Source: Nitratireductor soli
GTDB taxonomy: Bacteria > Pseudomonadota > Alphaproteobacteria > Rhizobiales > Rhizobiaceae
Reading direction: 5' to 3'
DNA: 64,000 nucleotides
NCBI RefSeq assembly: GCF_001050155.1
Contig: NZ_LFVY01000009.1
Location: 62,001-126,000 of the forward strand
Shown: positions 41,922 to 59,192 of the stretch, piece by piece
Numbering within the stretch: the stretch's first letter is position 1
Layout: the number at the start of each line of letters is the position of its first letter
Program-made: the position numbers and the translations under genes
Notes under the pieces: generated by a model
Seen by the model: only the letters and a program-made list of their open reading frames with translations
Told to the model about the DNA's origin: nothing
Database searches by the model: none

Positions 41922-43496
41922 TCAGCGTCCTCCCAATTGCTGGGCGAGCATGAAGCCCGAGGCGGCGCCGACGCCGGCGCCCGGCCAGGTGGCCGCGCCA
42001 GCCAGGTGGAGATGAGCGACCGGTGTGTTCCAGCCGGCAAAACCCGGCACCGGACGGAAGAGAAAATTCTGCGACAAATGATGGCTGCCGCAGATCTGGT
42101 CGCCGCCGACGAGATTCGGATTCGCCCGTTCGAGGTCGAGCGGCGAGAAGACGGCGCGGCCGAGAATCTTCTTCGACAGGCCGGGCGCATAGCGCTCGAT
42201 GATCGCCAGCGCGCGGTCGGCATAGGCGTCCTTGACCACGTCCCAGGTATCGGGGGCGATCCGGCTCGCCGCATCCGATCTGATCTCGGCCGGCAGCACG
42301 CGCACCTGGACCCACAGGACGTGTTTACCATCGGGAGCGCGCGTTGGATCGATCGCGGTGGGCTGACCGACGACAAGCACCGGCTCGTCGGGCAAGGCGC
42401 CGGCAATGGCCTGTTGATAGGTGCGCGCCATCATGTCGAGCGAGGGCGCCAGATGCACATAGGCGAAGCGTTGCAGTTCCGCGCCGGCGCTCCAGTCGGG
42501 CAGGCCGTCCAGCGCCAGATGGATCATCATGGTGCCGGGCGCATGGCGGAAGTCGCGCGCCGCCTTGTCGAACGCGGCATCGCCGGACCCGTTCGGCAAA
42601 AGGCCGGCGGCCAGCGCCCGTGGGGCCACCGTCGCCACCACGGCGCGGCGGGCCTGAAGCGTTTCGCCACCGGCGAGCCGCACACCCGTGGCGCGGCCGT
42701 TCTCGACGATGATTTGTTCGACCCGAGCGTCGGTGCGAATGACGCCGCCATCGGCTTGCAGCATGCCCTCCATGGCGCGGATCATCGTGTCTGCGCCGCC
42801 CTTGCCGATGACAAGGCCGAACGCCTGGCCGGCCATGGATTCCAGATAGGGAAACACCGCGCCGCCGGCGATGTCCGGCGCGAAGTCGAGATGCATGCCC
42901 CAGGCGGCCAATGTCGCCTTCACGGCATCGTTCTCGAACTGCTGGTCGAGCCAGGCGCGCGGCGAGGAGAGAAGCAGCCGGACAAGTTTCAGCGCACCGC
43001 CGACACCGGCCGAGCGCCAGGCCTTCCAGGCAAGTCCGGCCAGCGCGCGCGCCGTCATCGGGGAGCCAAGAACGGCGAAGATCAATGCCGCTTCACCGGG
43101 GAACGCTGCAACCAGCCGCCGCCAGGCCTCGGCGTCGCGCTCGGACAGGCGGGCGAGCCGCGCAACGGTCTTTTCCAGGTCGGTGCTGACGCCGAACCAG
43201 CGCCCGTCGGGAAACACGCTGGCAAAGCAATCGCTGGCGGGGGCCAGGGCGAAGCCGTGCAATTTCAATTCATCTGCATATAGTTTATGAAATGCGGAGC
43301 CGGCAAAAAGACTGAGATTCATCGCGCCGAAATCGTGCCGGTATCCCGGCAGCGTGAACGGTTCCGTGCGGACGGCGCCGCCAATGGCTGAACTCTGCTC
43401 CAGAACGCAAGTTGTCCAGCCCTTTCGAGCCAGATGCGCGGCGCAGGCCAATCCGTTGTGCCCGGCGCCTACAATGATCGCGTCGTAAATCTTCAC
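41922..43496 (-). CDS. FAD-dependent oxidoreductase of the phytoene-desaturase/PYROXD2 type (first copy)
   Basis: A 524-residue flavoprotein. The N-terminal FAD fold has GAGHNGLACAAHLARKG and the adjoining VLEQSSAIGGAVRTE; the C-terminal FAD motif is HLHLAGAATWPGAGVGAASG. The family includes carotenoid desaturases and many uncharacterised amine or alcohol oxidases. There are no other carotenoid genes here, so a carotenoid role is unlikely. It is read away from the cyclase gene, with a 123-bp shared promoter region carrying a palindrome, and is a distant paralogue of the flavoprotein at 44426-45994. The substrate is unknown. Confidence 0.88.
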   Translation of the reverse strand: MKIYDAIIVGAGHNGLACAAHLARKGWTTCVLEQSSAIGGAVRTEPFTLPGYRHDFGAMNLSLFAGSAFHKLYADELKLHGFALAPASDCFASVFPDGRWFGVSTDLEKTVARLARLSERDAEAWRRLVAAFPGEAALIFAVLGSPMTARALAGLAWKAWRSAGVGGALKLVRLLLSSPRAWLDQQFENDAVKATLAAWGMHLDFAPDIAGGAVFPYLESMAGQAFGLVIGKGGADTMIRAMEGMLQADGGVIRTDARVEQIIVENGRATGVRLAGGETLQARRAVVATVAPRALAAGLLPNGSGDAAFDKAARDFRHAPGTMMIHLALDGLPDWSAGAELQRFAYVHLAPSLDMMARTYQQAIAGALPDEPVLVVGQPTAIDPTRAPDGKHVLWVQVRVLPAEIRSDAASRIAPDTWDVVKDAYADRALAIIERYAPGLSKKILGRAVFSPLDLERANPNLVGGDQICGSHHLSQNFLFRPVPGFAGWNTPVAHLHLAGAATWPGAGVGAASGFMLAQQLGGR

Positions 43497-43530
43497 GTCG
43501 GCCGGAACTCCCCTCCCAGAAGCAAAGATA

Positions 43531-43544
43531 ATTGCATATGCATT
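43531..43544. promoter_or_regulatory. Putative MarR-type operator
   Basis: ATTGCATATGCATT contains the perfect 10-bp palindrome TGCATATGCA (43533-43542) and sits 35 bp upstream of the flavoprotein start and 76 bp upstream of the cyclase start. MarR proteins typically bind AT-rich palindromes of this size, and a marR gene lies in the rightward operon. The assignment is inference. Confidence 0.5.
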
Positions 43545-43619
43545 CTTTTTCGTCTAGATCATCGTAACGCTCATGCGGCGCGCCGCCGCGGATTCTTGAC
43601 GCTCTTTGGGAGGAGAAAC

Positions 43620-44408
43620 ATGACTCAGTCCGTTCTTGGCGAATTCGCCGGCCAGCTTCTTGCCGGCAAGATCGAGGTGGTGGATCTGTCGGCCGTGCTC
43701 GGTCCCGACACGCCGCTCCTCAAGCTGCCGCCCGAGCTGGCGGTGGACACACCGAAGATCGAGGTCCACAAGATCTCCGAGTATGACGACAAGGGACCGT
43801 TCTGGGCTTGGAACTGGCTCAAGGTGGGCGAGCATTCCGGCACCCATTTCGACGCGCCGATCCACTGGATCACCGGCCGCGATTTTCCCGACGGCTCGAC
43901 CGACACGATCGCGCCGAAGAATTTCGTCGCGCCGGTCAATGTCATCGATTGCTCGAAGGAAGTGGCCGAGAACAACGATTTCCTGCTGACCGTTGATCAC
44001 ATCAAGGCATGGGAAGCCAAGCATGGCGCGATCCAGGCCGGCGAATGGGTGGTGCTGCGCAGCGACTGGTACAAGCGCAACGGATCGGAAGCCGACTTCC
44101 TCAACGCCGACGAGACCGGCCCGCATTCGCCCGGACCGACACCCGAGGCGATCAGCTATCTGATCGACAAGGGCGTGATCGGCTGGGGCAGCGAGACCAT
44201 CGGCACCGATGCCGGCCAGGCCGGCGGCATGGAGCCGCCCTTCCCGGCGCATAATCTGATGCACAAGGCCAATCGCTATGGTCTGGCAAGCCTGGCCAAT
44301 CTCGACAAGCTGCCGCCGAAGGGAGCGATCCTGATCGCCGCGCCGCTGAAGATCGAGCATGGCACGGGCAGCCCCTGCCGCGCGCTGGCCCTGGTTCCCA
44401 AGGGCTGA
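43620..44408 (+). CDS. Cyclase-family metal-dependent hydrolase (isatin hydrolase/kynurenine formamidase type)
   Basis: A 262-residue PF04199 enzyme with the metal-binding signature HSGTHFDAPIHW (from about residue 64). Members hydrolyse amide or lactam bonds, for example N-formylkynurenine (KynB) or isatin (isatin hydrolase). The stretch NADETGPHSPGPTPE and the late ETIGTDAGQAGGMEPPFPAH look, from memory, closer to isatin hydrolases than to KynB; this is not verified. GGAGGAG lies just before the ATG at 43620. It is the first gene of a rightward operon with a flavoprotein, MarR regulator and IorAB. Confidence 0.87.
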   Translation: MTQSVLGEFAGQLLAGKIEVVDLSAVLGPDTPLLKLPPELAVDTPKIEVHKISEYDDKGPFWAWNWLKVGEHSGTHFDAPIHWITGRDFPDGSTDTIAPKNFVAPVNVIDCSKEVAENNDFLLTVDHIKAWEAKHGAIQAGEWVVLRSDWYKRNGSEADFLNADETGPHSPGPTPEAISYLIDKGVIGWGSETIGTDAGQAGGMEPPFPAHNLMHKANRYGLASLANLDKLPPKGAILIAAPLKIEHGTGSPCRALALVPKG

Positions 44409-44425
44409 ACGGCCGGGATACCGCC

Positions 44426-45994
44426 ATGTCCGCCCCCGATACGATTATCGTCGGCAGCGGCATCAACGCGCTGGTCGCCGCCGCCCTTCTGGGCGGCAAG
44501 GGCCGGCGTGTCCTGGTGCTGGAGCGCAATGAGCGCATCGGCGGCTGCATCCGCACCGAGGCGGTCACCGCGCCGGGCTTCGTGCATGATGTGATGGCCA
44601 CCACCTTCGTGCTGTTCGTCACCTCGCCGGCCTATGCGGCGCTGGCGGGCGATCTGGCGCGGCACGGGCTGGAGTTCTGCAACAGCGATACGCCGACCGG
44701 CGTGTTGCGGCCGAACGGCGATTTCCTCATTCACGGCCGCGACCGGACGGCGAATGTGGCGGCATTCGATGCAGTCGAAGCCGGTGATGGCGTGCAGTAC
44801 CTGGCGGACATTGCCTCGGTCGAACGGAATGCCGGGTTGATCTTCGGCCTGCTTGGCGGGCGGGTGTGGAGTTTTGCCACGGCACGTCTCCTGGCGGGCG
44901 AGGCCTGGCGGCGCGGCCCGCGGGCGCTGGCGAGCTTCTTCGGCGAAGCGCTGACGCCGGCGCGCGGCTGGCTGGAAAGCAGTTACGGTTCCGAAACGAC
45001 ACGGGCATTGTGGGCACCATGGGCGCTGCATGCGGGGCTCGGGCCGGAAGATGCCTTCTCCGGCCAGATCAGCAAGGTGATCGCGTTTGCCCTGGAGGCC
45101 GCCGGTGCGCCGGTGGTCAAGGGCGGGGCGCAGAATCTGCTCGACGCCTTTCAAGGATTGATCGAGGAGCGCGGCGGGGAAATCCGCACCGGGGCCGATG
45201 TGGCCGAGATTCTCACGACGAACGGCAAGGCGCGCGGCGTGCGGCTGGCTTCCGGCGAGGAGATCGCCGCCTCGACCATTGCCTGCTCGGTGACGCCGGA
45301 TCAGCTCTACGGGCGTCTTCTGGCGGCGACGCCGCAGCCGGAAGCCGGCGAAGCAACGCGCCGCTATCGCTATGGAAAAGGCAATTTCCAGCTTCACTAC
45401 GCGCTTGACCGCCCGCCCGCATGGCGCAGCAAGGGGTTGAGCGACGTGGCGCTGCTGCATCTGACGCCGGGGCTCGACGGTGTGTCGAAAGCCTGCAACG
45501 AGGCGCTGCGCGGCATGCTGCCCGAGGAGCCGACCATCTGCGTCGGCCAGCCGCACGCGCTCGACCCGTCGCGCTGTCCGCCGGGAAAGGCTGTCTTGTG
45601 GCTGCAGCTTCCCGAAGCGCCGCGCCACGTGCGCGGCGATGCCGCCGGAAAGCTGGAGATACCGGCCGATGGGCGCTGGACGCCGGCGCTGCGCGAGGCC
45701 TATGCGGACCGGGCGGAAGCGGTTCTCAGCCGCCATATCGACGGGTTTGCCGGCACCATCATCGCGCGGCGGGCCTATTCGCCGGCGGATCTGGAAGCGA
45801 TGAACGTCAATCTGGTCGGGGGCGATCCCTATGGCGGGTCATCGACGGTTGACCAGTCCTTCCTGTGGCGGCCGTTCAAGAACAGCATGAATCATACTAC
45901 GGCGGTCGACGGGCTTTATCATATCGGCGCATCGACCCACCCCGGGGCTGGTCTCGGCGGTGGCTCGGGCTATTTACTGGCGGAGAGGCTGTGA
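44426..45994 (+). CDS. FAD-dependent oxidoreductase of the phytoene-desaturase/PYROXD2 type (second copy)
   Basis: A 522-residue flavoprotein with FAD-fold motifs IIVGSGINALVAAALLGGKG (the third glycine of GxGxxG is Ala) and VLERNERIGGCIRTE, and the C-terminal LYHIGASTHPGAGLGGGSG. It is related along its length to the product of 41922-43496, for example in NVNLVGGDPYGGS versus NPNLVGGDQICGS. It starts 17 bp after the cyclase gene, and its stop overlaps the marR start. The two flavoproteins may form a heteromer or act on successive intermediates. The reaction is unknown. Confidence 0.87.
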   Translation: MSAPDTIIVGSGINALVAAALLGGKGRRVLVLERNERIGGCIRTEAVTAPGFVHDVMATTFVLFVTSPAYAALAGDLARHGLEFCNSDTPTGVLRPNGDFLIHGRDRTANVAAFDAVEAGDGVQYLADIASVERNAGLIFGLLGGRVWSFATARLLAGEAWRRGPRALASFFGEALTPARGWLESSYGSETTRALWAPWALHAGLGPEDAFSGQISKVIAFALEAAGAPVVKGGAQNLLDAFQGLIEERGGEIRTGADVAEILTTNGKARGVRLASGEEIAASTIACSVTPDQLYGRLLAATPQPEAGEATRRYRYGKGNFQLHYALDRPPAWRSKGLSDVALLHLTPGLDGVSKACNEALRGMLPEEPTICVGQPHALDPSRCPPGKAVLWLQLPEAPRHVRGDAAGKLEIPADGRWTPALREAYADRAEAVLSRHIDGFAGTIIARRAYSPADLEAMNVNLVGGDPYGGSSTVDQSFLWRPFKNSMNHTTAVDGLYHIGASTHPGAGLGGGSGYLLAERL

Positions 45995-46476
45995 TGGACG
46001 AGCGTGTCGACGGCAGGAATCCACGGGTCACGACGCTGGGGCAGATCGGCCTGCAGCAATTCGCCCCGTATCTGATGAACCGCATCATGGGCCGCTACAA
46101 TGCCAGCCTGCGGCTCGACCTTCGGCGCCAGGGGCTGACCGTGCCGCAGGTGCGGGCGCTGGCCGTGCTGGCGGTCGGCGACGGCATGTCGATCAATGAG
46201 CTCTCCGTCTTCACGGTGATCGAGCAATCGACCATGAGCCGCACGCTCGATGCGCTGGAGGCGCAGGGACTGGTGCGGCGCGAAGCCTGCCAGGACGACA
46301 GCCGCACGCGCAAGATCTTTCTGACCGAGAGCGGACGCGAGGAGTTCAACCGTGCCTGGCCGGCCATGCATGAAGCGTTCGAGCACATGTTCGCCGGCAT
46401 AGACGACGCGGAGTACACGGCCTTCATCGGCACGTTGCAAAAGCTCCTCGGCAACATCCGCAAACACGATTTTTAA
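45994..46476 (+). CDS. MarR-family transcriptional regulator
   Basis: A 160-residue winged-helix regulator. Recognition-helix motifs are MSINELSVFTVIEQSTMSRTLDALE, and the wing contains CQDDSRTRKIFLTESGRE. MarR proteins usually repress catabolic operons and release DNA when an aromatic or phenolic ligand binds. The ATG at 45994 overlaps the flavoprotein stop (TGATG), with GGAGAG 6 nt upstream; the longer frame is out of family. Likely targets are the divergent promoter at 43497-43619 and its own operon. Confidence 0.92.
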   Translation: MDERVDGRNPRVTTLGQIGLQQFAPYLMNRIMGRYNASLRLDLRRQGLTVPQVRALAVLAVGDGMSINELSVFTVIEQSTMSRTLDALEAQGLVRREACQDDSRTRKIFLTESGREEFNRAWPAMHEAFEHMFAGIDDAEYTAFIGTLQKLLGNIRKHDF

Positions 46477-46535
46477 GCATCCGTTTCGCGCGCCCCTCCC
46501 CCAGGGGCGCGGATCCGGCGACGGGAGACTGAACC

Positions 46536-48689
46536 ATGGCTGAACGTTCCTTCGTCAAGGAAGTGGAAAAACTTCGCCTTGGAGCGGGCGAGACGTTTCA
46601 CGGCGAGGGCATCCTCGCCATCACCAAGGCGCTGCTGCAGAGCGGTGTCGGCTATGTGGGCGGCTATCAGGGCGCGCCGATCAGCCATCTGATGGATGTG
46701 CTGGCCGACGCGCAGGACATTCTGGGCGAACTGGGCGTGCATTACGAGGCGAGCGCCTCGGAGGCGACGGCGACGGCCATGCTGGCTGCCTCCGTGCACT
46801 ATCCCATTCGTGGCGCCTGCGCCTTCAAATCGGCCGTCGGCCTGAATGTCGCATCGGACGCGCTGGCCAATCTGGCCTCCGGCGGTGTTACCGGCGGGGC
46901 GCTGATCATCGTCGGCGAGGACTATGGCGAGGGCTCCTCGATCATGCAGGAGCGCAGCCATCCCTTCGCCATGAAGAGCCAGGTCTGGCTGCTCGACCCG
47001 CGCGCCAATCTGCCGTCCATCGTTCAGGCGGTCGAGGACGGGTTCGAGCTCTCGGAAGTGTCCAACACGCCGGTCATGCTGATGGTGCGCATCCGCAGCT
47101 GCCATGTGTCCGGCAGCTTCGAGACCAAGGACAACCGCCGCCCGACGATGACGGTCGCCGAGGCGTTGGAAACGCCGCGCCGCGACACCAACCGCATCGT
47201 CCTGCCGCCCGCCTCCTTCCTGCATGAGAAGGAGAAGGTGGAAAAGCGCATGCCGCAAGCGGTGGAGTTCATCCGCTCGCGCAAGATCAACGAGTTCTTC
47301 GGGCCGCAAGGCGGAAAATCCGGCATCATCCTGCAAGGCGGCATGTACAACGCCGTCATCCGCGCCCTGCAGCGGCTGGGCCTGGCCGACGTCTATGGCG
47401 AGACGGATGTGCCGCTTTATGTGCTCAACGCCGTCTATCCACTGATCGACGACGAGGTGATCGCCTTTTGCGAGGACAAGGAAACGGTCCTGATCGTCGA
47501 GGAAGGCCAGCCCAACTATCTCGAGCAGGCCATCGCCTCGATGATGCACAAGGCGGCGCTGGACACGCGCATCCTCGGCAAGGAAATGCTGCCGATGGCC
47601 GGCGAATACACCGGCCAGGTGATGCTCGACGGGATCAGCGCCTATCTGCGCGCGCATGCGCCGCAGATGCTTGCCGCGCAATTCCTGGCGCCGAATGCTT
47701 CGGGCGAAAACGCGCTGGCGGCCGACCTTGCCAAGGTGGTGCCGGGGCGTCCGCCGGGGTTCTGCACCGGTTGCCCGGAGCGGCCGATCTTTGCCGCCAC
47801 CAAGCTGATCGAGCAGGAGCTCGGGCCGCACCACATCGCCTCCGACATCGGCTGCCATCTGTTTTCCATCATGCCGCCGTTCGAGCTGGGGGCGACGACG
47901 ATGGGCTATGGCCTCGGGCCGGCCTCGGCCTCGGCCTTCAATGCGCCCGACGCCAAGCGGCGGTCGATCTCCTTCGTCGGCGATGGCGGGTTCTGGCACA
48001 ATGGCCTGACCTCCTCCATCGGCAATGCCGTGTTCAACCAGAATGACGGCGTCATCGTCATCGTCGACAATTATTACTCGGCGGCCACGGGCGGGCAGGA
48101 CATCCTGTCGTCGCGCGCCGACAACCGCTCCAAATCAACCCAGCATCCGATCACCGATGCGGTGAAGGGGATGGGGGTCAAATGGATACGGCACATCGAC
48201 CGCACCTATGACGTCAACAAGGTGCGCGCCGCGTTGCGCGAGGCGCTGACGACCGAGGAGAAGGGCCCGAAGGTCATCGTCGCCTCGTCGGAATGCATGC
48301 TCAACCGGCAGCGCCGCGAGAAACCGCTGGCCGCCAAGGCCATCGCCGGCGGCGAACGCGTCGTGAAGCCGCGCTTCGGCGTTGACGAGGATGTGTGCAC
48401 GGGCGATCACGCCTGCATGCGGCTGTCGGGCTGTCCGTCGCTTTCGGTGAAGACGCTGGACGATCCGCTGCGCGACGACCCCGTGGCCTCCATCGACCAC
48501 ACCTGCGTCGGTTGCGGCAATTGCGGTGAGGTGGCGGAGGCCGCCGTGCTGTGCCCGTCCTTCTACCGCGCCGATGTGGTGCACAATCCCGGCCGTTGGG
48601 ACCGGTTCATGGATGGCGTCCGGCGCGGCGTTACCCACTTCCTGCAGAGCCGGCGCGAAAAACGTCGCCTGACCTTCATCGAGGCTTGA
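46536..48689 (+). CDS. iorA: Indolepyruvate ferredoxin oxidoreductase alpha-type subunit (thiamine diphosphate and Fe-S)
   Basis: A 717-residue 2-oxoacid:ferredoxin oxidoreductase subunit. Its class oxidises and decarboxylates an aryl- or branched-chain 2-oxoacid to the acyl-CoA while reducing ferredoxin. The N-terminal half has pyruvate-oxidoreductase domains I and II (GYVGGYQGAPISHLMDVL). The thiamine-binding domain has GDGGFWHNGL and VIVDNYYSA. A C-terminal ferredoxin-like domain has a canonical second cluster, C657-x2-C660-x2-C663-x9-C673-P, but a non-canonical first one, C621-x5-C627-x5-C633-P. The actual 2-oxoacid is unknown; the symbol only reflects family. Confidence 0.88.
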   Translation: MAERSFVKEVEKLRLGAGETFHGEGILAITKALLQSGVGYVGGYQGAPISHLMDVLADAQDILGELGVHYEASASEATATAMLAASVHYPIRGACAFKSAVGLNVASDALANLASGGVTGGALIIVGEDYGEGSSIMQERSHPFAMKSQVWLLDPRANLPSIVQAVEDGFELSEVSNTPVMLMVRIRSCHVSGSFETKDNRRPTMTVAEALETPRRDTNRIVLPPASFLHEKEKVEKRMPQAVEFIRSRKINEFFGPQGGKSGIILQGGMYNAVIRALQRLGLADVYGETDVPLYVLNAVYPLIDDEVIAFCEDKETVLIVEEGQPNYLEQAIASMMHKAALDTRILGKEMLPMAGEYTGQVMLDGISAYLRAHAPQMLAAQFLAPNASGENALAADLAKVVPGRPPGFCTGCPERPIFAATKLIEQELGPHHIASDIGCHLFSIMPPFELGATTMGYGLGPASASAFNAPDAKRRSISFVGDGGFWHNGLTSSIGNAVFNQNDGVIVIVDNYYSAATGGQDILSSRADNRSKSTQHPITDAVKGMGVKWIRHIDRTYDVNKVRAALREALTTEEKGPKVIVASSECMLNRQRREKPLAAKAIAGGERVVKPRFGVDEDVCTGDHACMRLSGCPSLSVKTLDDPLRDDPVASIDHTCVGCGNCGEVAEAAVLCPSFYRADVVHNPGRWDRFMDGVRRGVTHFLQSRREKRRLTFIEA

Positions 48690-48699
48690 GGATAGCGGC

Positions 48700-50241
48700 A
48701 TGGCCACGCGCAGCAAGAAACAAAGCGATCAGAAGATCACCAAGCTCGCCGTCCTGGCGGTCGGCGGCCAGGGTGGCGGCGTGCTCACCAACTGGATCAC
48801 CGATGTCGCCGAGCGTAATGGCTATCTGGCGCAGTCGACCTCGGTCGCCGGCGTGGCGCAGCGCACCGGCGCGACGATCTACTATGTGGAGATGTGCCCG
48901 GATACCGGCCGGCGGCCGGTTTTCGCCCTGTCGCCGGCGCAGGGCGACGTGGACATCCTGATCGCCGCCGAGCTGATGGAGGCGGGCCGCGCGGTGATGC
49001 GCGGCTTCGTGACGCCCGACCGCACCACGCTGATCGCCTCGGCGCACCGGATCGCCGCCGTGTCGGAAAAGATCGAGCCGGGTGACGGCCGCGCCGACGG
49101 GCCGACCGTGCATGAGAATGCGCGGCAGGCGGCCAGCCGCTATGTCGCCTTCGACATGGAAAAGATCGCCGTCGAGGCGGGGTCGATGATCTCCGCCAGC
49201 CTGTTCGGCGCGCTGGCGGGATCGGGCGCCCTGCCCTTCGCGCGCGAAAGCTATGAAGAAACCATCCGCGCATCGGGTCGCGGCGTGAAGGCCAGTCTGG
49301 CCGCCTTCGGCATGGCCTATGACCGCGCGACGGGCGTTGCTGCGCCGGACGCAGCCGAACCTGCAGCCGGCTCGGCTGGCAAGGACGTTTCCGTGCGCGG
49401 CCCCGACCGTCTCGTGGCGGAGTGGCGCCGGCTTGCCGGTCGCGCCGGGGCCTATCCCGAACCGGTTGCCGCGATGGCGCTGGCCGGCCTGCGCAAGGTG
49501 GTCGACTATCAGGATCTGGCCTATGGCGCCGACTATCTCGATCGCGTTGATGAGGCGCTGGCGCTGGACGATGCCGGGCGGGGGCATGCATTGTCGACCG
49601 CCGCGGCCAAGCACGTGGCCAATGCCATGTGCTATGACGACATTCTGCGCGTCGCCGATCTGAAGACACGCACGGCGCGCGAGGCGCGCATCCGCCGCGA
49701 GATGAGTGTCGGCGACAGCAACGTCCTGCAGGTGACGGAGTATTTTCACCCGCGCATCGAAGAGGTGTGCGGCACGCTGCCCGCCGGTCTCGGCCGCTTC
49801 ATCGAAAGCCGGCCGGGCCTGGCCAAATGGATCGACCGGCGCATCAATCGCGGCCGGCGTATCCGCACAGACAGCCTGACGGGTTTTGGCGCGCTGTGGG
49901 TGATCGGTACGCTGCGACCCTGGCGGCGCGGCCTGCTGCGCCATCAGGTGGAGACGGCGCATCTGCAGCGCTGGTACGCGCTGGCGCTCGACACGGCGCG
50001 TCGCGACTACGCACTGGGCGTCGAGATCCTCAACTGCCGCCGGCTGATCAAGGGGTATAGCGACACGCATATGCGGGCGCATTCCAAGTTCGACCGGGTG
50101 TTGTCGGGCCTGCCCTTGCTCGAGGGCCGGGCGGACGCCGCCGACTGGCTGCGCCGGCTGCGCGAGGCGGCGCTGAAGGACGAGAAGGGCGATATGCTCG
50201 ACGGGGCGCTGAAGACGGTGGCGACGCTCGAGGCGGCTTGA
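48700..50241 (+). CDS. iorB: Indolepyruvate oxidoreductase beta-type subunit with DUF6537-like C-terminal extension
   Basis: A 513-residue partner of the preceding subunit. The N-terminal gamma-type domain (about residues 15-200) has the signature GGQGGGVLTNWITDVAERNG and VAGVAQRTGATIYYVEM. The C-terminal 300 residues are a helical extension of the DUF6537 type found in long IorB proteins of aerobic proteobacteria; its role is unknown. GAGGATA precedes the ATG, 10 bp after the alpha gene. The pair needs an external ferredoxin, and no ferredoxin gene is seen nearby. Confidence 0.86.
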   Translation: MATRSKKQSDQKITKLAVLAVGGQGGGVLTNWITDVAERNGYLAQSTSVAGVAQRTGATIYYVEMCPDTGRRPVFALSPAQGDVDILIAAELMEAGRAVMRGFVTPDRTTLIASAHRIAAVSEKIEPGDGRADGPTVHENARQAASRYVAFDMEKIAVEAGSMISASLFGALAGSGALPFARESYEETIRASGRGVKASLAAFGMAYDRATGVAAPDAAEPAAGSAGKDVSVRGPDRLVAEWRRLAGRAGAYPEPVAAMALAGLRKVVDYQDLAYGADYLDRVDEALALDDAGRGHALSTAAAKHVANAMCYDDILRVADLKTRTAREARIRREMSVGDSNVLQVTEYFHPRIEEVCGTLPAGLGRFIESRPGLAKWIDRRINRGRRIRTDSLTGFGALWVIGTLRPWRRGLLRHQVETAHLQRWYALALDTARRDYALGVEILNCRRLIKGYSDTHMRAHSKFDRVLSGLPLLEGRADAADWLRRLREAALKDEKGDMLDGALKTVATLEAA

Positions 50242-50289
50242 TATGCCGGCTTAGGGAAGTTTCGCTGCGTCGCTTATCATAGCAGTCCA

Positions 50290-51945: not shown

Positions 51946-51949
51946 GATC

Positions 51950-52939
51950 TTACTCCGGCCTTTTTTCGGCGGGTTGCGTTCTTTTTGCGAGCGTTCCCAG
52001 ATGGCGCGAAACCGTGCGCATCTCGCCCAATATGCCTTGCGGGCGCAAAAGCAGCACTGCACATATTGCAACGCCGATGAGAGCAATTTGCAACGAGGCG
52101 GCGCGGGCTTGCTGGCCGGGATCGAAAACCGCGGCGATCAGCGCCGCTGAAACAGCCCAGATTCCCCAGACGAGGACGGCGCCGAGAATGGCGCCGCGAT
52201 TGTTGCCGGAACCGCCAACGATGAGCATCGCCCAGACCTGGAAGGTCAGCATCGGCAGGTAGTTCTCAGGGGCGATGAAGCCGATGAAATGGGCCTGTGC
52301 CGCGCCGGCCAGTCCCATGATGCCGCCGCCGATGGCGAAAGCCTGCAGGCGAAAGCGCGTGGCGCTCTTGCCCAGCGCCAGGGCCGCTGTCTCATCCTCG
52401 CGAATGGCGCGCAGGACGCGGCCCCAGGGGCTGCGCACCAGCCGCTCGAGGGCGAAGTACAGGAGCAGGACGACGGTGATGAGGAGCGCCAGATTGAACA
52501 GGCTGAACAGCAGCGGATTGCCGGCCTGGGCGGCAAAGGGGCGCGGGATGAAGCCGATGCCGAACGGCCCGCCGGTGATCGGCTCCAGGTTGAGCGCGCA
52601 AAGCTGGACGGCAGCAGCGATACCGAATGTGGCAATGGCCAGATAGTCGGCACGCAGGCGTATGGTCAGCCGGCCGACCAGATAGGAGACCAGGGCGGCG
52701 GCCAGTGCGCCGCCCAGCCAGCCGACAGCCATGGGCAGGCCGAAACCCCCCAGCCGGCCGGCCGTGTCCGGCGTTGTCAGAATGGCGGAGACATAAGCGC
52801 CGATGGCGACGAAGCCGGCGATGCCGACGTTGAACAGCCCGGTCTGCCCCCATTGCAGGTTGAGGCCGAGGCACATGATGGCGTAGGTCAGCGCGACGGT
52901 CAGGAAGAAGCAGCCATAGGCGATCAGTTCGACGCTCAT
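51950..52939 (-). CDS. livM: Branched-chain amino acid-type ABC transporter permease LivM
   Basis: A 329-residue inner-membrane permease of the LivM class with eight to ten hydrophobic segments. Family motifs are LNLQWGQTGLFNVGIAGFVAIGAY, the EAA-like loop RAIREDETAALALGKS and the C-terminal LLRPQGILG. The start overlaps the livH stop (ATGA at 52936-52939). LivHM-type channels carry amino acids but also urea, amides and aromatic acids; the substrate here is unknown. Confidence 0.92.
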   Translation of the reverse strand: MSVELIAYGCFFLTVALTYAIMCLGLNLQWGQTGLFNVGIAGFVAIGAYVSAILTTPDTAGRLGGFGLPMAVGWLGGALAAALVSYLVGRLTIRLRADYLAIATFGIAAAVQLCALNLEPITGGPFGIGFIPRPFAAQAGNPLLFSLFNLALLITVVLLLYFALERLVRSPWGRVLRAIREDETAALALGKSATRFRLQAFAIGGGIMGLAGAAQAHFIGFIAPENYLPMLTFQVWAMLIVGGSGNNRGAILGAVLVWGIWAVSAALIAAVFDPGQQARAASLQIALIGVAICAVLLLRPQGILGEMRTVSRHLGTLAKRTQPAEKRPE

Positions 52940-53850
52940 GCCTGCGGCCTCCCCAACAGGCCTTGCGGGCGCAGGAGCAGCACCAGGACGAGGATGACGA
53001 AGGCGACGGCCGTTCTCCACTCGGCGCCGATCAACTGAACCGTGCCGGCCTCGGCCAGCCCGACGATCAGCCCGGCCAGCATGGCGCCCGGCACGCTGCC
53101 GATGCCGCCGAGGATCGCCGCGGCGAACAGCGGCAGAAGCAGGTCGAAGCCCATATAGGGACGCAGCTGGACGAGAAGGCCGGCCATGATGCCGGCGACA
53201 CAGGCAAGGGCGGCACCGAGCAGCCAGACCACGCGGATGACCTTGCGCACATCGACGCCGACGACGCCGGCCAGCGCCTGGTTCTCGCTGACGGCGCGCA
53301 TGGAGCGGCCGATGGCCGTGCGCGTCAGAAGCAGGTGCACGGCGACGACCAGCAGCACCGCGACGGCCAGGGCGAGAAGCTGGTCCGGCGTGGCACGCAT
53401 GCCGCCGCCGAGCGGCAGGGCGATCTGCAGTTCGCGGGTAAAGTAAGCCGGCTTGGACGTGAAGACGAATTCGAGCAGGCTGCGCAGGGTGAGCGCCGCG
53501 CCGAAGCTGGCCATGACCATGACGATGATGGAGCTGCGCCGGACGCGCAACCGGCCGAACAGAACGGCGTCGACGGCGAGCGCCAGAAGGCCGGTCAGGG
53601 CCATGGCGGCGATGGCGGCGAGCGGCAGGGACCAGCCGAAGGAGAAAGGCCCGATCGGCGCGAGAAGCCCGGCCGACAACACGCCGAGCGCCGAGCTCAG
53701 CGCCAGCGCGGCGTATGCGCCGAAGGTCAGGAGCTCGCTATGGGCGAAATTGGCGAAACGCAGGATCGAATAGGTCAGCGTCACGCCAATGGCGCCGAGG
53801 CCGTACATGGCTCCGGCGATCAGTCCGTCGACCAGCACTTGCGGGTTCAT
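52936..53850 (-). CDS. livH: Branched-chain amino acid-type ABC transporter permease LivH
   Basis: A 304-residue inner-membrane permease with the LivH start VLVDGLIAGAMYGLGAIGVTL, the loop IGRSMRAVSENQALAGVVGVDV that contacts the ATPases, and the C-terminal LLRPQGLLG. It has about eight hydrophobic helices. It pairs with LivM encoded downstream and overlaps livF by ATGA (53847-53850). Confidence 0.93.
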   Translation of the reverse strand: MNPQVLVDGLIAGAMYGLGAIGVTLTYSILRFANFAHSELLTFGAYAALALSSALGVLSAGLLAPIGPFSFGWSLPLAAIAAMALTGLLALAVDAVLFGRLRVRRSSIIVMVMASFGAALTLRSLLEFVFTSKPAYFTRELQIALPLGGGMRATPDQLLALAVAVLLVVAVHLLLTRTAIGRSMRAVSENQALAGVVGVDVRKVIRVVWLLGAALACVAGIMAGLLVQLRPYMGFDLLLPLFAAAILGGIGSVPGAMLAGLIVGLAEAGTVQLIGAEWRTAVAFVILVLVLLLRPQGLLGRPQA

Positions 53851-54602
53851 CGCCCTTCCTCCTGTCCGGCAGGCGCCGCGCCGAGGTAGAGCTGGGCGAC
53901 GATCGGGTCTTCAGCCAGCGTCGCCGCCGGTCCCTCGTGGCGCAATTCCCCCTCCACCAGGATCACGGCGCGGTGGGCGATGGCCAGCGCCGCCTTCACG
54001 TTCTGCTCGACCAGGACGATGGTGATGCCGGCGGCGTTGATGTCCTTCAGCCGGGCGAAAACCTCGCCGACGATCTTTGGCGACAGGCCGGCGGAGGGCT
54101 CGTCGAGGATCAGTACGGATGGCTTGACGATCAGCGCGCGGGCGACGGCGAGCATCTGCCTCTGCCCGCCGGAGAGATTGCCGGCGCGGGCCGAGCGGCG
54201 GGCAGCGAGATCCGGGAAGAGGTCGCAGACCTCGGCGATGCGTTCCGCCTGCACGCGCCGGGGCAGGATGTCGGCGGCGAGCTGCAGGTTCTCCTGGATC
54301 GACAGGGTGGCGAAGATGTTTTCCGTTTGCGGGACGAAGGCGAGGCCATGGCGCACTTTTTCCTGCACCGGTGAGCGGGTGATGTCCGCCCCGGCGAGAA
54401 AGGCATGGCCGGAGTGGATCGGTACCAGCCCGGCGATGGCCTTGACCAGCGTCGATTTGCCGGCGCCGTTCGGTCCCAGGATGACCACCAGTTCACCCGC
54501 AGCCACCTGGAAATCCACGCCGCGGACGATCGGCAGGTCGCGCTCGTAGCCGGCGACCAGCGCTTGCGTGGCCAGCGCGGGCGGTGGTGCCACGGTGCTC
54601 AT
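53847..54602 (-). CDS. livF: ABC transporter ATP-binding protein LivF
   Basis: A 251-residue ATPase with Walker A GPNGAGKST, Q-loop FVPQTENIF, signature LSGGQRQML and Walker B VLILDEPSAGLSP. FVPQTENIF and the compact length identify LivF rather than LivG. It is encoded between livG (7-bp gap) and livH in the usual cluster. Confidence 0.94.
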   Translation of the reverse strand: MSTVAPPPALATQALVAGYERDLPIVRGVDFQVAAGELVVILGPNGAGKSTLVKAIAGLVPIHSGHAFLAGADITRSPVQEKVRHGLAFVPQTENIFATLSIQENLQLAADILPRRVQAERIAEVCDLFPDLAARRSARAGNLSGGQRQMLAVARALIVKPSVLILDEPSAGLSPKIVGEVFARLKDINAAGITIVLVEQNVKAALAIAHRAVILVEGELRHEGPAATLAEDPIVAQLYLGAAPAGQEEGR

Positions 54603-54609
54603 GGGGCGC

Positions 54610-55431
<822 letters not shown>

Positions 55432-55461
55432 AGGATCGCTTGCCAAATCGTGATCTATGAT

Positions 55462-55473
55462 GTTTGATCAAAC
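55462..55473. promoter_or_regulatory. Putative GntR-type operator
   Basis: GTTTGATCAAAC is a perfect 12-bp palindrome in the livG-gntR divergent region, 31 bp upstream of livG. FadR/FCD-class GntR proteins bind short palindromes of this kind, and the adjacent rightward gene is such a regulator. Confidence 0.5.
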
Positions 55474-55697
55474 TTGACATTGCTGCGGAAAGCAACCGGA
55501 AAGTTTGCGTGCCTGCCGAAGCCTTTCTCAAGGCGGCTCCGGCGGGCTGGTCCGGACAGAACCGTCCGGCCCGGCGCAAGGGAAGCGAGGTGGCGTATGA
55601 CGGCGGATCGAAACAGGCCCGGGCCAGCGTGGTTTCGCGATGGGGCCGAACGGGTTGTGCGCCTTGCCGCACCGCTGCGGGCGCGAGGCGACCACTG

Positions 55698-56405
55698 ATG
55701 GTGAGCCGCGCGCCTCTCTCGCCGGTTGGCCGGGAAACCCTGCAGGACCGGGTCTATGCCGAGCTTCGCCGGTCGTTGATGCACGGCATGTTCGACGCGG
55801 GTGCCATGCTGCGCATCCAGGATGTCGCGGCCAAGCTCGACACCAGCACCATGCCGGTGCGCGAGGCGCTCGGGCGGCTGGTGTCCGAACAGGCGCTCGA
55901 GGCCTTGCCGAACCGCTCGGTGCGCGTGCCGCTCATCACCCGTGAACGGCTCGACGATCTTGCGCGGGCGCGCTGCCTGGTCGAGGGTGCGCTCACCGCC
56001 CTGGCCAGCGCAACGCTGTCGAAGCAGGATTTCGATGCGCTGCGCGTGCTGACCCGCCGCTGCGACGCGGCCTTCGGCGGCGACGATCCCGACAAGGCGC
56101 ACACAACCTCCGAACTGAACCACAGTTTCCACTTCCATATCTACCGTGCGGCCGGTTCGGCGGTGCTGATCCCCGTGGTGGAAAGCCTGTGGCTGCAATC
56201 AGGGCCTTATGTGCGCGCGGCGGCGCAGATCCATGACGAGGACCGCGACATTCGCGCCACGCATTTCCACTGGGCACTGATCGAGGCGCTCGAGCGCCGT
56301 GATGCGGAGGCCTCGATCAAGGCGCTGACCCAGGACATCACCCGTTCGTTCGACTTGATCCGCAGCAGTCTCGACGCCAAGGAGAAGGTGGCGCGCTATG
56401 GTTGA
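55698..56405 (+). CDS. GntR-family regulator, FCD (FadR) subfamily
   Basis: A 235-residue repressor. The N-terminal winged helix (about residues 8-75) has MLRIQDVAAKLDTSTMPVREALGRL. The C-terminal all-helical FCD ligand domain carries the metal-site residues in SELNHSFHFHIYRAAG and later His positions in THFHWALIEAL. FCD members sense small organic acids. ATG at 55698 with GAGGCG upstream is chosen; the longer upstream frame is not family-like. It likely controls the divergent liv operon and its own operon with TIGR04076, reductase and livK. Confidence 0.9.
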   Translation: MVSRAPLSPVGRETLQDRVYAELRRSLMHGMFDAGAMLRIQDVAAKLDTSTMPVREALGRLVSEQALEALPNRSVRVPLITRERLDDLARARCLVEGALTALASATLSKQDFDALRVLTRRCDAAFGGDDPDKAHTTSELNHSFHFHIYRAAGSAVLIPVVESLWLQSGPYVRAAAQIHDEDRDIRATHFHWALIEALERRDAEASIKALTQDITRSFDLIRSSLDAKEKVARYG

Positions 56406-56769
56406 ATCCAGGGATGACGGTTTTGATCTCTACGATCTGCGCGTCGAGGTGGTGGTGCCGGAGGGCGCGCCGATCTATTGCGGCGCCAAGCCCGGCGATC
56501 ATTTCGAGCTGCGCGGCGAGATGCTGCATCTGCCGCCGGGCCAGGGCTTTTCCATCTATTCTTTGGCGGCCGTGCTGCCGTTGCTGGCCGCCAAGCAGCG
56601 CCCGGCTCACGCGAACGACTGGATGACCACCGACGCGGAGGTGGCCTGTCCAGACCCGAACTGCGGATCCCGTCTGCGCATCACCCGGCTCGGCAAGCGC
56701 CGTTTCAGCCATGCCGAAACCACCGCAGTGCCCCTGACGAAGGACCAGACAGACGATGCAGCGCATTGA
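56398..56769 (+). CDS. TIGR04076 family protein
   Basis: A 123-residue protein of the TIGR04076 family, of unknown function. Conserved features visible are YCGAKPGDHFEL with Cys28, LPPGQGFSIYSLAAVLPLL in the middle, NDWMTTDAEVACPDPNC with Cys84 and Cys89, and a short basic end. The cysteines could bind a metal. It overlaps the gntR end by 8 bp and the next aldo/keto reductase start by 14 bp, so it is co-translated with catabolic genes. Confidence 0.82.
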   Translation: MVESRDDGFDLYDLRVEVVVPEGAPIYCGAKPGDHFELRGEMLHLPPGQGFSIYSLAAVLPLLAAKQRPAHANDWMTTDAEVACPDPNCGSRLRITRLGKRRFSHAETTAVPLTKDQTDDAAH

Positions 56770-57805
56770 ACTCGCCGCCGGCTACGAGATTTCCCGCGTC
56801 ATTCGCGGCGGCTGGCAATTGTCGAGCGGCCACAGCGCGGCGCAGAGCGAGGACCCGGTCGCCGATATGGTCGCCTTCGCCGATGCGGGCATCACCACGT
56901 TTGATTGCGCCGATATCTATACGGGTGTCGAGGAGCTGATCGGCCGCTTCCGCAAGCGCTATGCGGATCTGCGCGGCGCGGCGGCGCTGGCCGCCGTCAA
57001 GGTGCACACCAAATGCGTGCCAGACCTGAACCTGCTGCCACGCCTGACCCGGGCCAATGTGGCGGGCATCGTCGATGAATCGCTGCGCCGGCTGGGGCAG
57101 GAGCGGCTCGACCTGGTGCAGTTTCACTGGTGGGACTACGCCGTGCCGGGATGGCTGGAGGCGGCGCACTGGCTGGACGAGCTGCGCCGCGAGGGCAAGA
57201 TCGACAGGCTCGGCGGGACCAATTTCGACACGGCGCACATGCTGGCGATCGCCGAGAGCGGCGTGCCGCTGACCTCCATGCAGGTGCAGTATTCGCTTCT
57301 CGACGGGCGCCCGGCGAAGGAGATGACTGATGCCGCCGCCGCCCATGGCGTCTCGTTGCTGTGCTACGGCACCGTTGCCGGCGGCTTCCTGAGCGAGCGC
57401 TGGCTGGGCGTGGCCGAACCGGCCGCGCAGCTCGAAAACCGTTCGCTGACCAAGTACAAGCTGATCATCGATGATTTCGGCGGCTGGGCGCTTTTCCAGG
57501 CGCTGTTGCGTGCGCTCGATGCCGTTGCCCGGCGGCATGGCAGCACCGTCGCCACCGTGGCGAGCGCCGCCATGCTGCGGCGGCCATCGGTCGCCGGCGT
57601 CATCGTCGGTGCGCGCAACCGTTCGCATCTCAGCGCGAATCTGGCCATTTCGGATCTCGCCCTGATGGCTGGCGACATGGCGGAAATCGATGCGGTGCTG
57701 GCTAAGGCCAACGCCATTGAAGGCGATGTCTTCGACCTGGAGCGGGACCGTGAAGGCCGGCACGGCTCGATCATGAAATACAACCTCAACAAGGGCGCTG
57801 CCTGA
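56756..57805 (+). CDS. Aldo/keto reductase
   Basis: A 349-residue NADPH-dependent oxidoreductase barrel with the catalytic tetrad Asp50, Tyr55, Lys86 and His124 (QFHWWDY). It closely resembles the reductase domain of the fusion protein at 50470-51945 (both have QFHWW, ELRREG, TNFD-AH). Its C-terminus is typical (VIVGARNRSHLSANLAI). It lacks the RidA domain of its paralogue. The substrate is unknown; the context suggests reduction of a carbonyl intermediate in the same pathway. It overlaps TIGR04076 by 14 bp and precedes livK. Confidence 0.9.
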   Translation: MQRIELAAGYEISRVIRGGWQLSSGHSAAQSEDPVADMVAFADAGITTFDCADIYTGVEELIGRFRKRYADLRGAAALAAVKVHTKCVPDLNLLPRLTRANVAGIVDESLRRLGQERLDLVQFHWWDYAVPGWLEAAHWLDELRREGKIDRLGGTNFDTAHMLAIAESGVPLTSMQVQYSLLDGRPAKEMTDAAAAHGVSLLCYGTVAGGFLSERWLGVAEPAAQLENRSLTKYKLIIDDFGGWALFQALLRALDAVARRHGSTVATVASAAMLRRPSVAGVIVGARNRSHLSANLAISDLALMAGDMAEIDAVLAKANAIEGDVFDLERDREGRHGSIMKYNLNKGAA

Positions 57806-57923
57806 CACGGGGCAAGGAATGCCGCGCGGGATGGCGCGGTGAAAAACGGAAGACCGGAAGGGCCCCCGGCATGTGGGCCAGAAACCAAAACCAAACCTGC
57901 AAACCAGACAGGGGAACACAGTC

Positions 57924-59192
57924 ATGAAAAAGATACTTCTTGCCACAACGGTTTTCGCTGGGGTTTTCGCCGGGCTTGCAATGCCGGCGGCGGCCCAGAA
58001 TTGCGACATCACCATCGGCCTGGTGATGGAGTTGACCGGGCCCGCCGGCCAGTACGGCCAGGCCGGCGCCAAGTCCGTCGAAATGGCCTTTCGCGACTTC
58101 AATGAGGCCGGCGGCGTCGACGGCTGCAAGCTGGTGACCGACACGCGCGACAGCCAGAGCCAGGGCACGGTGGCCGTCGACCAGGCGACACAGCTCGTCA
58201 ACGTCAAGAAGGTGCCGGTCATCATCGGCGGCATCATATCGTCCGTGTCGATCCCGATCCTCACTTCCGTCACGGCAGCAGCCGGCGTGGTGCAGGTGTC
58301 TCCGGCGTCGTCCTCGCCGACGCTGACGGCGCTCGGCCGCGACGGCAAGACCAACGGCGTTTTCTTCCGCACCATCACGTCGGATGCGCTGCAGGGCACG
58401 GCGGCGGCGAAATATGCGCTGGACCAGGGGCTGAAGAAGCTCGCCATCGTCCACGTCAACAATGATTTCGGCGTCAACATGGTGCGCGAATTCCAGGCGG
58501 CCTACGAGAAACTGGGCGGCACGGTAACTTCGGTGACGCCCTATAACGAGCGCCAGGCGAACTATGCGTCGGAGGCGAGCGCCGCCATGGCCGGTGAGCC
58601 TGAGGCGCTCTACCTGGTCAGCTATCCCGTCGACGGCGCGACCATCGCGCGGGCCTGGATTTCCGGCGGAGGCCCGCAGAAATTCCTGCTCAATGACGGC
58701 ATGAACTCCGAAGACTTCATCGAGGCCGTCGGGGCAAAATATCTCAACGAAGCCTATGGCACCTCCTCGGGCACGAGCCCGACCGCCTCGACGGAGTATT
58801 TCTACGGCAGTTACGAAGCGTTCTCCGGCGGCATCAAACCGGACGCGCCGGCGGCCGACCGTTCCTACGACGCCGGGGCCATCGTCGCGCTGGCGGTGGC
58901 CAAGGCCGGCAAGGGCGATGCGGCGGCCATCAAGGCGGCGATCCCGGAAGTGGTCGCGTCGGGCGGCGAGGTCATCCATGCCGGCGAGCAAGAATTCGCC
59001 AAAGCGCTGGCGTTGATCAAGGAAGGCAAGCCGGTCAAGTATGAAGGCGTCATCGGCCCGGTCAGCTTCGACCAGTATGGCGACATCACCGGTCCGTTCC
59101 GTCTGTGGCAGATCAAGGACGGCACCGTTACCACGGTCGGCGAGATGAGCGCCGACGAGGTGGCCAAGGTCAAGGCAGGGATCGCCAACTAG
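57924..59192 (+). CDS. livK: Branched-chain amino acid-type ABC transporter substrate-binding protein LivK
   Basis: A 422-residue periplasmic type I binding protein with a signal peptide (MKKILLATTVFAGVFAGLA, cleavage after PAAAQ). Family motifs are ITIGLVMELTGPAGQYG, FNEAGGVDGCKL, the serine-rich QVSPASSSPTLT that contacts the carboxylate of amino-acid ligands, and the hinge region GTSSGTSPT. It completes the LivFGHM transporter encoded divergently 2 kb upstream. GGGGA lies upstream of the ATG at 57924. Ligand not known. Confidence 0.94.
   Translation: MKKILLATTVFAGVFAGLAMPAAAQNCDITIGLVMELTGPAGQYGQAGAKSVEMAFRDFNEAGGVDGCKLVTDTRDSQSQGTVAVDQATQLVNVKKVPVIIGGIISSVSIPILTSVTAAAGVVQVSPASSSPTLTALGRDGKTNGVFFRTITSDALQGTAAAKYALDQGLKKLAIVHVNNDFGVNMVREFQAAYEKLGGTVTSVTPYNERQANYASEASAAMAGEPEALYLVSYPVDGATIARAWISGGGPQKFLLNDGMNSEDFIEAVGAKYLNEAYGTSSGTSPTASTEYFYGSYEAFSGGIKPDAPAADRSYDAGAIVALAVAKAGKGDAAAIKAAIPEVVASGGEVIHAGEQEFAKALALIKEGKPVKYEGVIGPVSFDQYGDITGPFRLWQIKDGTVTTVGEMSADEVAKVKAGIAN

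What the first reader, a model, noticed from the sequence alone, without database searches (positions are those of the whole stretch)
41922..59192. Uncharacterised MarR/GntR-controlled catabolic locus combining IorAB, paired flavoproteins, a cyclase-type hydrolase and a Liv transporter
Seen: three tightly packed operons with overlapping genes encode two related phytoene-desaturase-type flavoproteins, an isatin-hydrolase/KynB-type hydrolase, MarR, IorA, long IorB, an aldo/keto reductase-RidA fusion, LivFGHM-K, GntR, a TIGR04076 protein and a second aldo/keto reductase. Known: IorAB makes acyl-CoA from aryl or branched 2-oxoacids, PF04199 enzymes open lactams or formamides, MarR proteins often sense aromatics, and Liv systems import amino acids and aromatic acids. 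Inference: a complete import and oxidation route for an amino-acid-like or indolic compound. No Rieske dioxygenase of the known auxin-degradation type is present, so the route would differ from those.
Basis: partly seen in the sequence, partly recalled or inferred. Interest (0 to 1): 0.75.

Follow-up and report, generated by a model that had tools for sequence, protein, structure and literature searches.

The report
Isatin-to-anthraniloyl-CoA indole breakdown operon
This bacterium carries a gene set that very probably opens isatin, a breakdown product of indole and of the plant hormone auxin, and then turns it into an activated form of anthranilate; if so, it gives a job to two "indolepyruvate" enzyme genes that mark auxin-degrading bacteria but have no assigned reaction there.

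Summary
The genes are as described, but they form two separable units. The right one (AKR-RidA, LivFGHM, GntR, TIGR04076, AKR, LivK; 50470-59192) occurs whole and alone on a Rhizobium plasmid and rarely accompanies the left one. The "cyclase" is a close relative of crystallised isatin hydrolase B with the checked catalytic residues kept. Its product, isatinate, is an aryl 2-oxoacid, and its gene shares an operon with the 2-oxoacid oxidoreductase IorAB. Of 199 genomes of the order, the 22 with strong isatin hydrolase all have this IorA and an ABM-type (2-aminobenzoyl-CoA monooxygenase/reductase) gene. Where ABM is linked to these genes, the usual neighbouring CoA ligase is mostly missing (present in 1 of 8; 44 of 53 elsewhere). 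IorAB's reaction and the FAD reactions are inferred. New variant of a known kind.

The parts
36575..41787 (-). Dpp/Opp-type ABC importer, five genes: ATPases 36575-37387 and 37380 to about 38264 (start inferred), permeases 38264-39136 and 39102-40109, binding protein 40186-41787
   Evidence: Pfam; binding protein near IorA in 31 of 70 loci
41922..43496 (-). FAD1, CrtI/CrtO-like flavoprotein, divergent from isatin hydrolase
   Evidence: 33 of 70 loci; model pLDDT 85.7, best PDB fold 4rep
43497..43619 (.). divergent promoter region; palindrome TGCATATGCA at 43533-43542, a candidate MarR operator (speculative)
   Evidence: only match of this pattern in the window; a match in 10 of 63 upstream regions of relatives, mostly same-genus
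43620..44408 (+). isatin hydrolase (type B), isatin -> isatinate
   Evidence: PDB 4J0N isatin hydrolase B, E 3.9e-131; residues
44426..45994 (+). FAD2, flavoprotein; proposed dioxindole -> isatin (inferred)
45994..46476 (+). MarR-family regulator, presumed effector-sensing repressor
46536..48689 (+). IorA (IadA-type) TPP subunit of a 2-oxoacid oxidoreductase; proposed isatinate oxidoreductase
48700..50241 (+). IorB (IadB-type) subunit with DUF6537
50470..55446 (-). separate unit, not part of the isatin module: AKR-RidA (50470-51945), LivM, LivH, LivF, LivG
55464..59192 (+). separate unit, continued: GntR, TIGR04076 protein, second AKR, LivK

Best explanation
The core operon (isatin hydrolase, FAD2, MarR, IorA, IorB) is the lower half of an aerobic indolic pathway. 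Isatin hydrolase opens isatin to isatinate (2-aminophenylglyoxylate, an aryl 2-oxoacid). IorAB then decarboxylates isatinate oxidatively with CoA, giving anthraniloyl-CoA (2-aminobenzoyl-CoA), CO2 and reduced ferredoxin, so that no ATP-dependent ligase is needed, and the ABM monooxygenase/reductase pathway takes over. Isatin comes from one of two interchangeable upstream modules: the Rieske iad pathway from indole-3-acetate, or the FAD1/FAD2 module, in which FAD2 most likely oxidises dioxindole (3-hydroxyindolin-2-one) to isatin. Shown by sequence: identity and key residues of isatin hydrolase, gene order, co-occurrence, and ligase displacement. Inferred: IorAB's substrate and product, FAD2's reaction, any role of FAD1 and Dpp, and the MarR ligand.
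For: Hydrolase matches isatin hydrolase B at E 3.9e-131 with metal ligands and catalytic residues kept. cyc-marR-iorA-iorB is an operon in 8 of 9 same-genus genomes and on Sulfitobacter and Paracoccus plasmids. In 199 genomes of the order: 22 of 22 with strong isatin hydrolase have IorA, 0 of 163 without IorA have it (Fisher 4e-20); ABM in 35 of 36 IorA+ and 26 of 163 IorA- genomes; 22 of 22 with isatin hydrolase have ABM. ABM within 35 kb of IorA or isatin hydrolase has a ligase within 15 kb in 1 of 8, the other ABM genes in 44 of 53. G140, G120 and G218 have isatin hydrolase, IorA and ABM and no ligase match at E <= 1e-120. Isatin-hydrolase genomes split into 13 FAD only, 6 iad only, 2 both, 1 neither. 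FAD2 and isatin hydrolase lie beside indole/styrene monooxygenase on two plasmids and in L044. The window genome has ABM with tryptophan 2,3-dioxygenase and a benzoate-CoA-ligase-family gene in one gene run.
Against: 14 of 36 IorA+ genomes lack strong isatin hydrolase, so IorAB may have other substrates. On plasmids, 10 of 50 IorA records have no isatin hydrolase and 17 of 57 isatin hydrolase records have no IorA (other replicons not searched). In Variovorax the iadC-K2 region, apparently without iadAB, makes anthranilate (PMC12633357), so IadAB is not needed for free anthranilate. A ligase stays near ABM or ABM-pathway genes in G106, L068, L084, L094, L095 and on the Alloyangia and Tsukamurella plasmids, and beside ABM in the window genome; 18 of 20 genomes have some ligase match. 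Three of the eight linked cases are one genus, and several unlinked distances are cut by contig ends. Same-genus genomes mostly lack the FADs at this place (FAD2 in 2 of 9, FAD1 in 1 of 9). No indole monooxygenase was found in the window. No enzyme was assayed.
Confidence: 0.55

Rival explanations
1. IorAB acts on isatinate but releases free anthranilate, which is then ligated to CoA or oxidised; the ABM association only reflects how these bacteria use anthranilate.
For: iad loci end in anthranilate (PMC9613470, PMC12633357 passages); the window genome has a ligase about 5 kb from ABM.
Against: CoA esters are the usual products of this enzyme class (established knowledge); the ligase is absent beside ABM in 7 of 8 linked cases and from three whole genomes at the threshold used.
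Confidence: 0.15
2. IorAB works on another aryl 2-oxoacid (indolepyruvate or phenylpyruvate) and is only co-regulated with isatin hydrolase, as part of a broad aromatic amino-acid regulon.
For: Family name; 14 of 36 IorA+ genomes lack strong isatin hydrolase; in IorA+ genomes without it, ABM was not found linked to IorA.
Against: 0 of 163 IorA- genomes have isatin hydrolase; the two genes form a minimal operon in several genera and are near each other in an actinobacterial plasmid.
Confidence: 0.2
3. The whole stated interval, including the AKR-RidA/Liv/GntR/LivK unit, is one pathway.
For: Adjacency in the window and in two same-genus genomes, G007 and G009.
Against: The right unit is whole and alone on a Rhizobium plasmid, and absent from this place in 7 of 9 same-genus genomes and from 69 of 70 loci.
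Confidence: 0.05

Closest known systems
iad loci (indole-3-acetate -> isatin -> anthranilate; Variovorax, Bradyrhizobium, Achromobacter)
   Same: MarR beside IorA/IorB (iadR, iadA, iadB); an isatin-hydrolase-family gene; isatin and isatinic acid as intermediates (PMC9613470 passages). A Bradyrhizobium locus (L104) has IorAB at 72%/54% with iadCDEF, iadG, iadH and an IHA-type hydrolase
   Different: No Rieske, CoA ligase or thiolase genes in the window locus; FAD pair and Dpp instead; type B rather than type A hydrolase
Isatin hydrolase B of Labrenzia aggregata (PDB 4J0N)
   Same: Aligned over 260 residues; metal, catalytic and most pocket residues kept
   Different: Pocket position F63 is a tryptophan; the gene context of 4J0N was not seen
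iif indole-degradation clusters (AraC, SDR, SMO-type oxygenase, flavin reductase, IifA)
   Same: The Alloyangia and Azospirillum relatives have AraC, SDR, oxygenase and reductase beside FAD2 and isatin hydrolase
   Different: No oxygenase in the window locus; FAD2 plus isatin hydrolase would stand in for IifA (inference)
Aerobic 2-aminobenzoyl-CoA (ABM) pathway
   Same: ABM-type fusion with SDR, hydratase, dehydrogenase and RidA genes in relatives and in this genome
   Different: Proposed entry by IorAB instead of the ATP-dependent ligase; the ABM operon is 35 kb beyond the window
Phenylglyoxylate oxidoreductase (benzoyl-CoA-forming; recalled, from no call)
   Same: Same proposed chemistry: an arylglyoxylate to an aroyl-CoA
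   Different: Different enzyme subfamily (recalled); IorAB here is a two-subunit DUF6537-type enzyme

Membership tests
Isatin hydrolase (Mn-dependent, PF04199) | close sequence match to verified enzymes | tested here: met
   4J0N E 3.9e-131, 5NMP 4e-92, 5NNB 5e-90
Isatin hydrolase (Mn-dependent, PF04199) | metal ligands H73, H77, D79 and catalytic H83, D198, H212 (type B numbering) | tested here: met
   alignment and invariant columns; roles from PMC6117287 passages
Isatin hydrolase (Mn-dependent, PF04199) | activity on isatin | not testable with these tools
   no assay
Kynurenine formamidase (KynB) | NCBIfam equivalog TIGR03035 cut-off | tested here: not met
   28.9 bits against 223.05
Indolepyruvate ferredoxin oxidoreductase alpha (TIGR03336 equivalog) | curated cut-off | tested here: not met
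   295.3 bits against 650.9; a relative, not an equivalog by this test
Indolepyruvate oxidoreductase beta family (NF006179) | curated cut-off | tested here: met
   697.3 bits against 348
iad auxin-degradation locus | IorA/IorB (iadAB) beside a MarR gene | tested here: met
   gene order; marker status from PMC9613470
iad auxin-degradation locus | Rieske oxygenase iadDE in the locus | tested here: not met
   not in the window locus; on another contig of the same genome
iad auxin-degradation locus | IAA-binding residues of IadR in the MarR | not tested
   only whole-sequence PDB hits seen
Carotenoid desaturase / ketolase (CrtI, CrtO) | NCBIfam cut-offs | tested here: not met
   FAD1 and FAD2 229 and 145 bits against CrtO cut-off 1000; 137 and 108 against crtI_fam 238; the fold is similar
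2-aminobenzoyl-CoA monooxygenase/reductase (NF006101, named salicylyl-CoA 5-hydroxylase/oxidoreductase) | curated cut-off, gene in the window genome | tested here: met
   1291.5 bits against 1078 at C58:161321-163600; substrate inferred from the neighbouring tryptophan dioxygenase and ligase-family genes

The most novel reading that the evidence does not exclude
IorAB/IadAB of isatin-forming pathways is an isatinate:ferredoxin oxidoreductase that makes anthraniloyl-CoA without ATP, a reaction I found no description of in the papers I could search, and the CrtI-like FAD proteins carry out a flavin-based oxidation of dioxindole to isatin that lets indole, auxin and perhaps an imported indolic compound share one lower pathway, found on plasmids of Alpha- and Betaproteobacteria and of an actinobacterium.
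Probability: 0.45. Interest if true: 0.75.

Novelty: new variant of a known kind. Interest (0 to 1): 0.6.

Why it matters
Bacteria with iad loci shape root growth by degrading auxin, and iadA/iadB mark those loci without an assigned reaction in the papers I could read. A role as isatinate oxidoreductase would fill that gap, explain the fate of isatinate, show an ATP-saving entry into the ABM pathway, and join indole, auxin and isatin catabolism through one portable operon. It gives a simple enzyme test.

Tried and rejected
Kynurenine formamidase for the cyclase: 28.9 bits against a cut-off of 223, while isatin hydrolase B matches at 3.9e-131. Carotenoid biosynthesis for the FADs: below the curated cut-offs shown; Foldseek lists carotenoid desaturases, nicotine oxidoreductase and amine oxidases, which does not fix the reaction. 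LivK as an auxin binder: only Leu/Ile/Val-type and other extracellular ligand-binding PDB entries, and the Liv unit is separate. A VOC/glyoxalase-like protein as a missing module enzyme: at 62% identity or more it is in 8 of the 15 FAD2+ genomes and no other of the 199, but the window genome has no match at E <= 1e-30. A PDB sequence search with IorA found nothing at E <= 0.001. Literature: seven searches gave no paper that I could see assigning isatinate to IorAB (listings only, apart from the papers named). In one search the one paper with both terms is PMC9613470, of which I read passages. The library holds open-licence papers only; the JBC 2014 isatin hydrolase paper is not held. For PMC12633357 I read the outline, part 1 of 3 of the Results and passages; for PMC9613470, PMC11630574, PMC6117287, PMC6221969, PMC10470551 and PMC12538310 passages only.

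Rows dropped before counts: one search listed 37 genomes; 15 with only weak cyclase matches (under 124 bits) were left out and 22 (best match 299 bits or more) kept. In one search, 10 of 80 loci under 14 kb were left out; one search kept the best 80 of at least 594 confirmed relatives, so the 70 are the closest ones, not a random sample. Contig breaks cut the distances. FAD1 is a second match of 37-41% to FAD2, not a search of its own. The AKR/Liv unit was not searched for elsewhere in the same-genus genomes.
Full report
What is there. In the window the locus lies between parA, parB and a DNA-polymerase-delta-like gene (33710-36511) and argG (59337-60593). By IorA the nearest named relatives are Nitratireductor (91-93%).

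Two units, not one. Among nine same-genus genomes, isatin hydrolase was found beside MarR-IorA-IorB in 8, FAD2 in 2, FAD1 in 1, and the AKR/Liv/GntR/LivK unit in 2 (G007, G009). In 70 loci of at least 14 kb around IorA from named genomes (the closest relatives, not a random sample), isatin hydrolase is in 50, FAD2 in 35, FAD1 in 33, the Dpp binding protein in 31, and AKR-RidA in 1. The AKR/Liv unit, all nine genes at 65-78% identity, stands alone on a Rhizobium sp. BG4 plasmid. I treat it as a separate unit of unknown substrate.

The hydrolase. The PF04199 protein aligns over 260 residues with isatin hydrolase B of Labrenzia aggregata (PDB 4J0N, E 3.9e-131). Counting along the printed alignment, metal ligands H73, H77 and D79, catalytic H83, D198 and H212, and pocket residues W65, W84 and F209, as well as A224 and S225, are kept; F63 is a tryptophan. 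Roles come from PMC6117287 passages, some of them given there for the type A enzyme and carried over by alignment.

Why IorAB. Isatinate is 2-aminophenylglyoxylate, an aryl 2-oxoacid (established chemistry). IorA has a TPP domain and conserved C-terminal cysteines, as in 2-oxoacid oxidoreductases. The two steps share a minimal operon, cyclase-MarR-IorA-IorB, in most of the same-genus genomes and on Sulfitobacter and Paracoccus plasmids. In 199 genomes of the order IorA occurs in 36 and strong isatin hydrolase in 22; all 22 are IorA+, 0 of 163 IorA- genomes have it (Fisher 4e-20), and the 22 span 14 genera of 10 families. Isatin hydrolase is within 10 kb of IorA in 13 of 22. Against exclusivity, 14 of 36 IorA+ genomes lack strong isatin hydrolase. 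On plasmids 40 records carry both, of 50 with IorA and 57 with isatin hydrolase, 32 of the 40 within 6 kb; 19 of each set are Sulfitobacter, so these are not independent.

The CoA outlet. Three relatives have in the same cluster a gene of NF006101 (L044 1358, L036 1373, L032 1002 bits, the last below the cut-off of 1078). This family is named salicylyl-CoA 5-hydroxylase/oxidoreductase and holds the 2-aminobenzoyl-CoA monooxygenase/reductase, ABM (recalled). The window genome has one over the cut-off at C58:161321-163600, 35 kb past the window, in a gene run with a tryptophan 2,3-dioxygenase (413 bits, over cut-off), a benzoate-CoA-ligase-family protein, and RidA. ABM occurs in 35 of 36 IorA+ and 26 of 163 IorA- genomes, and in 22 of 22 with isatin hydrolase, 20 of these over the cut-off.

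Ligase displacement. If IorAB delivers the CoA ester, ABM needs no ligase beside it. In the eight genomes where ABM is within 35 kb of IorA or isatin hydrolase, a ligase is within 15 kb in one (G106); in the other 53 it is in 44 (Fisher 1.8e-4). Three of the eight are one genus. With a 55 kb limit, which takes in the window genome, it is 2 of 9 against 43 of 52. By genome, 13 of 22 with isatin hydrolase lack an adjacent ligase against 3 of 39 without; several on both sides end at contig edges. The clean cases are G085, G171, G103 and G141 (same contig, ligase 33 kb or more away) and G140, G120 and G218 (no ligase match at E <= 1e-120). In G140 the run is RidA, acyl-CoA dehydrogenase, enoyl-CoA hydratase, SDR, ABM, a VOC protein and Dpp, with fad1, cyclase, fad2 and IorA next to it on the same contig. 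Counter-examples keep a ligase near ABM or its pathway genes: G106, L068, L084, L094, L095, and the Alloyangia and Tsukamurella plasmids. In one search, 18 of 20 genomes have some ligase match, two of them only 32-40% identical.

Two ways to isatin. IadD is in 8 of 199 genomes and FAD2, each time with a second FAD1-like match, in 15; all are isatin-hydrolase genomes. Of the 22, 13 have only the FADs, 6 only IadD, 2 both (the window genome and G216) and 1 neither (G052). In a tree of 70 isatin hydrolases, a five-row clade holds the 4 iad-linked rows and the other 65 rows hold all 45 FAD-linked ones (100/100 on the branch between them; the program warns of long branches). One exception outside the tree is an Azospirillum plasmid with FAD2 beside a type-A-like hydrolase, and a Paracoccus plasmid has an iad operon next to cyclase-MarR-IorAB without FADs in the stretch searched. 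The window genome's own iad operon lies on C57: reductase, Rieske alpha and beta, CoA ligase, thiolase, SDR and a type A hydrolase matching PDB 5NNA at 6e-149. The crystallised isatin hydrolase A is nearly identical to the protein of such an operon on an R. aggregatum plasmid, which suggests that IadI, described as annotated kynurenine formamidase and possibly a broad amidase in PMC12633357, is an isatin hydrolase.

What feeds the FADs. On the Azospirillum thermophilum and Alloyangia pacifica plasmids FAD2 and the hydrolase share a region with AraC, SDR, styrene/indole monooxygenase and flavin reductase (Smoa_sbd). L044 also has the monooxygenase, L112 the AraC gene and L135 the reductase. A Tsukamurella plasmid has an FMO-like protein, a FAD2 homologue (43%), SDR and AraC with isatin hydrolase, IorAB, ABM and a ligase. 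Known iif clusters take indole through indole-2,3-dihydrodiol and 3-hydroxyindolin-2-one (dioxindole) to anthranilate (PMC12538310 and PMC6221969 passages). FAD2 plus isatin hydrolase could replace the last iif step, so dioxindole -> isatin is the simplest role for FAD2. This is inference; FAD1 and Dpp remain unassigned.

Comparison and novelty. iorA and iorB are exclusive markers of iad-like loci, and IadR binds between iadR and iadA (PMC9613470 passages). In Variovorax the iadC-K2 region, apparently without iadAB, restores anthranilate, and C8H7NO3, the formula of isatinic acid, strongly accumulates only in the strain overexpressing it (PMC12633357). This fits isatinate waiting for IadAB, but it also shows that IadAB is not needed for free anthranilate. 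I found no paper that assigns isatinate to IorAB, in an open-licence library only. I rate the module a new variant of a known kind, with the IorAB reaction as the new claim.

Noticed in passing
window 50470-59192; L159: A nine-gene unit (LivK, AKR, TIGR04076, GntR, LivGFHM, AKR-RidA) is portable on its own and its substrate is unknown; AKR-RidA matches 18 plasmid records at E <= 1e-80.
   Followed up: partly
L057:4134-11848 (G000 contig C57): Complete-looking iadC-H operon with a type A isatin hydrolase and a TRAP-like transporter region downstream; suggests IadI is isatin hydrolase.
   Followed up: yes
L056 (G000 C58:150000-169900): ABM gene run with tryptophan 2,3-dioxygenase, a benzoate-CoA-ligase-family gene, a Liv-type binding protein and RidA, suggesting a tryptophan-to-anthraniloyl-CoA route.
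   Followed up: partly
L142:13703-14326, L041:18377-18973 and others: VOC/glyoxalase-superfamily protein, in some relatives with a signal-peptide-like N-terminus, near the FAD/isatin hydrolase module in 14 fetched loci but not in the window genome.
   Followed up: partly
window 43533-43542: Palindrome TGCATATGCA in the fad1/cyclase divergent promoter, kept in same-genus relatives and a few others.
   Followed up: partly
L040 (G004): IorA of one same-genus genome is in two pieces, one with a TGA inside: a decayed gene or an assembly error.
   Followed up: no
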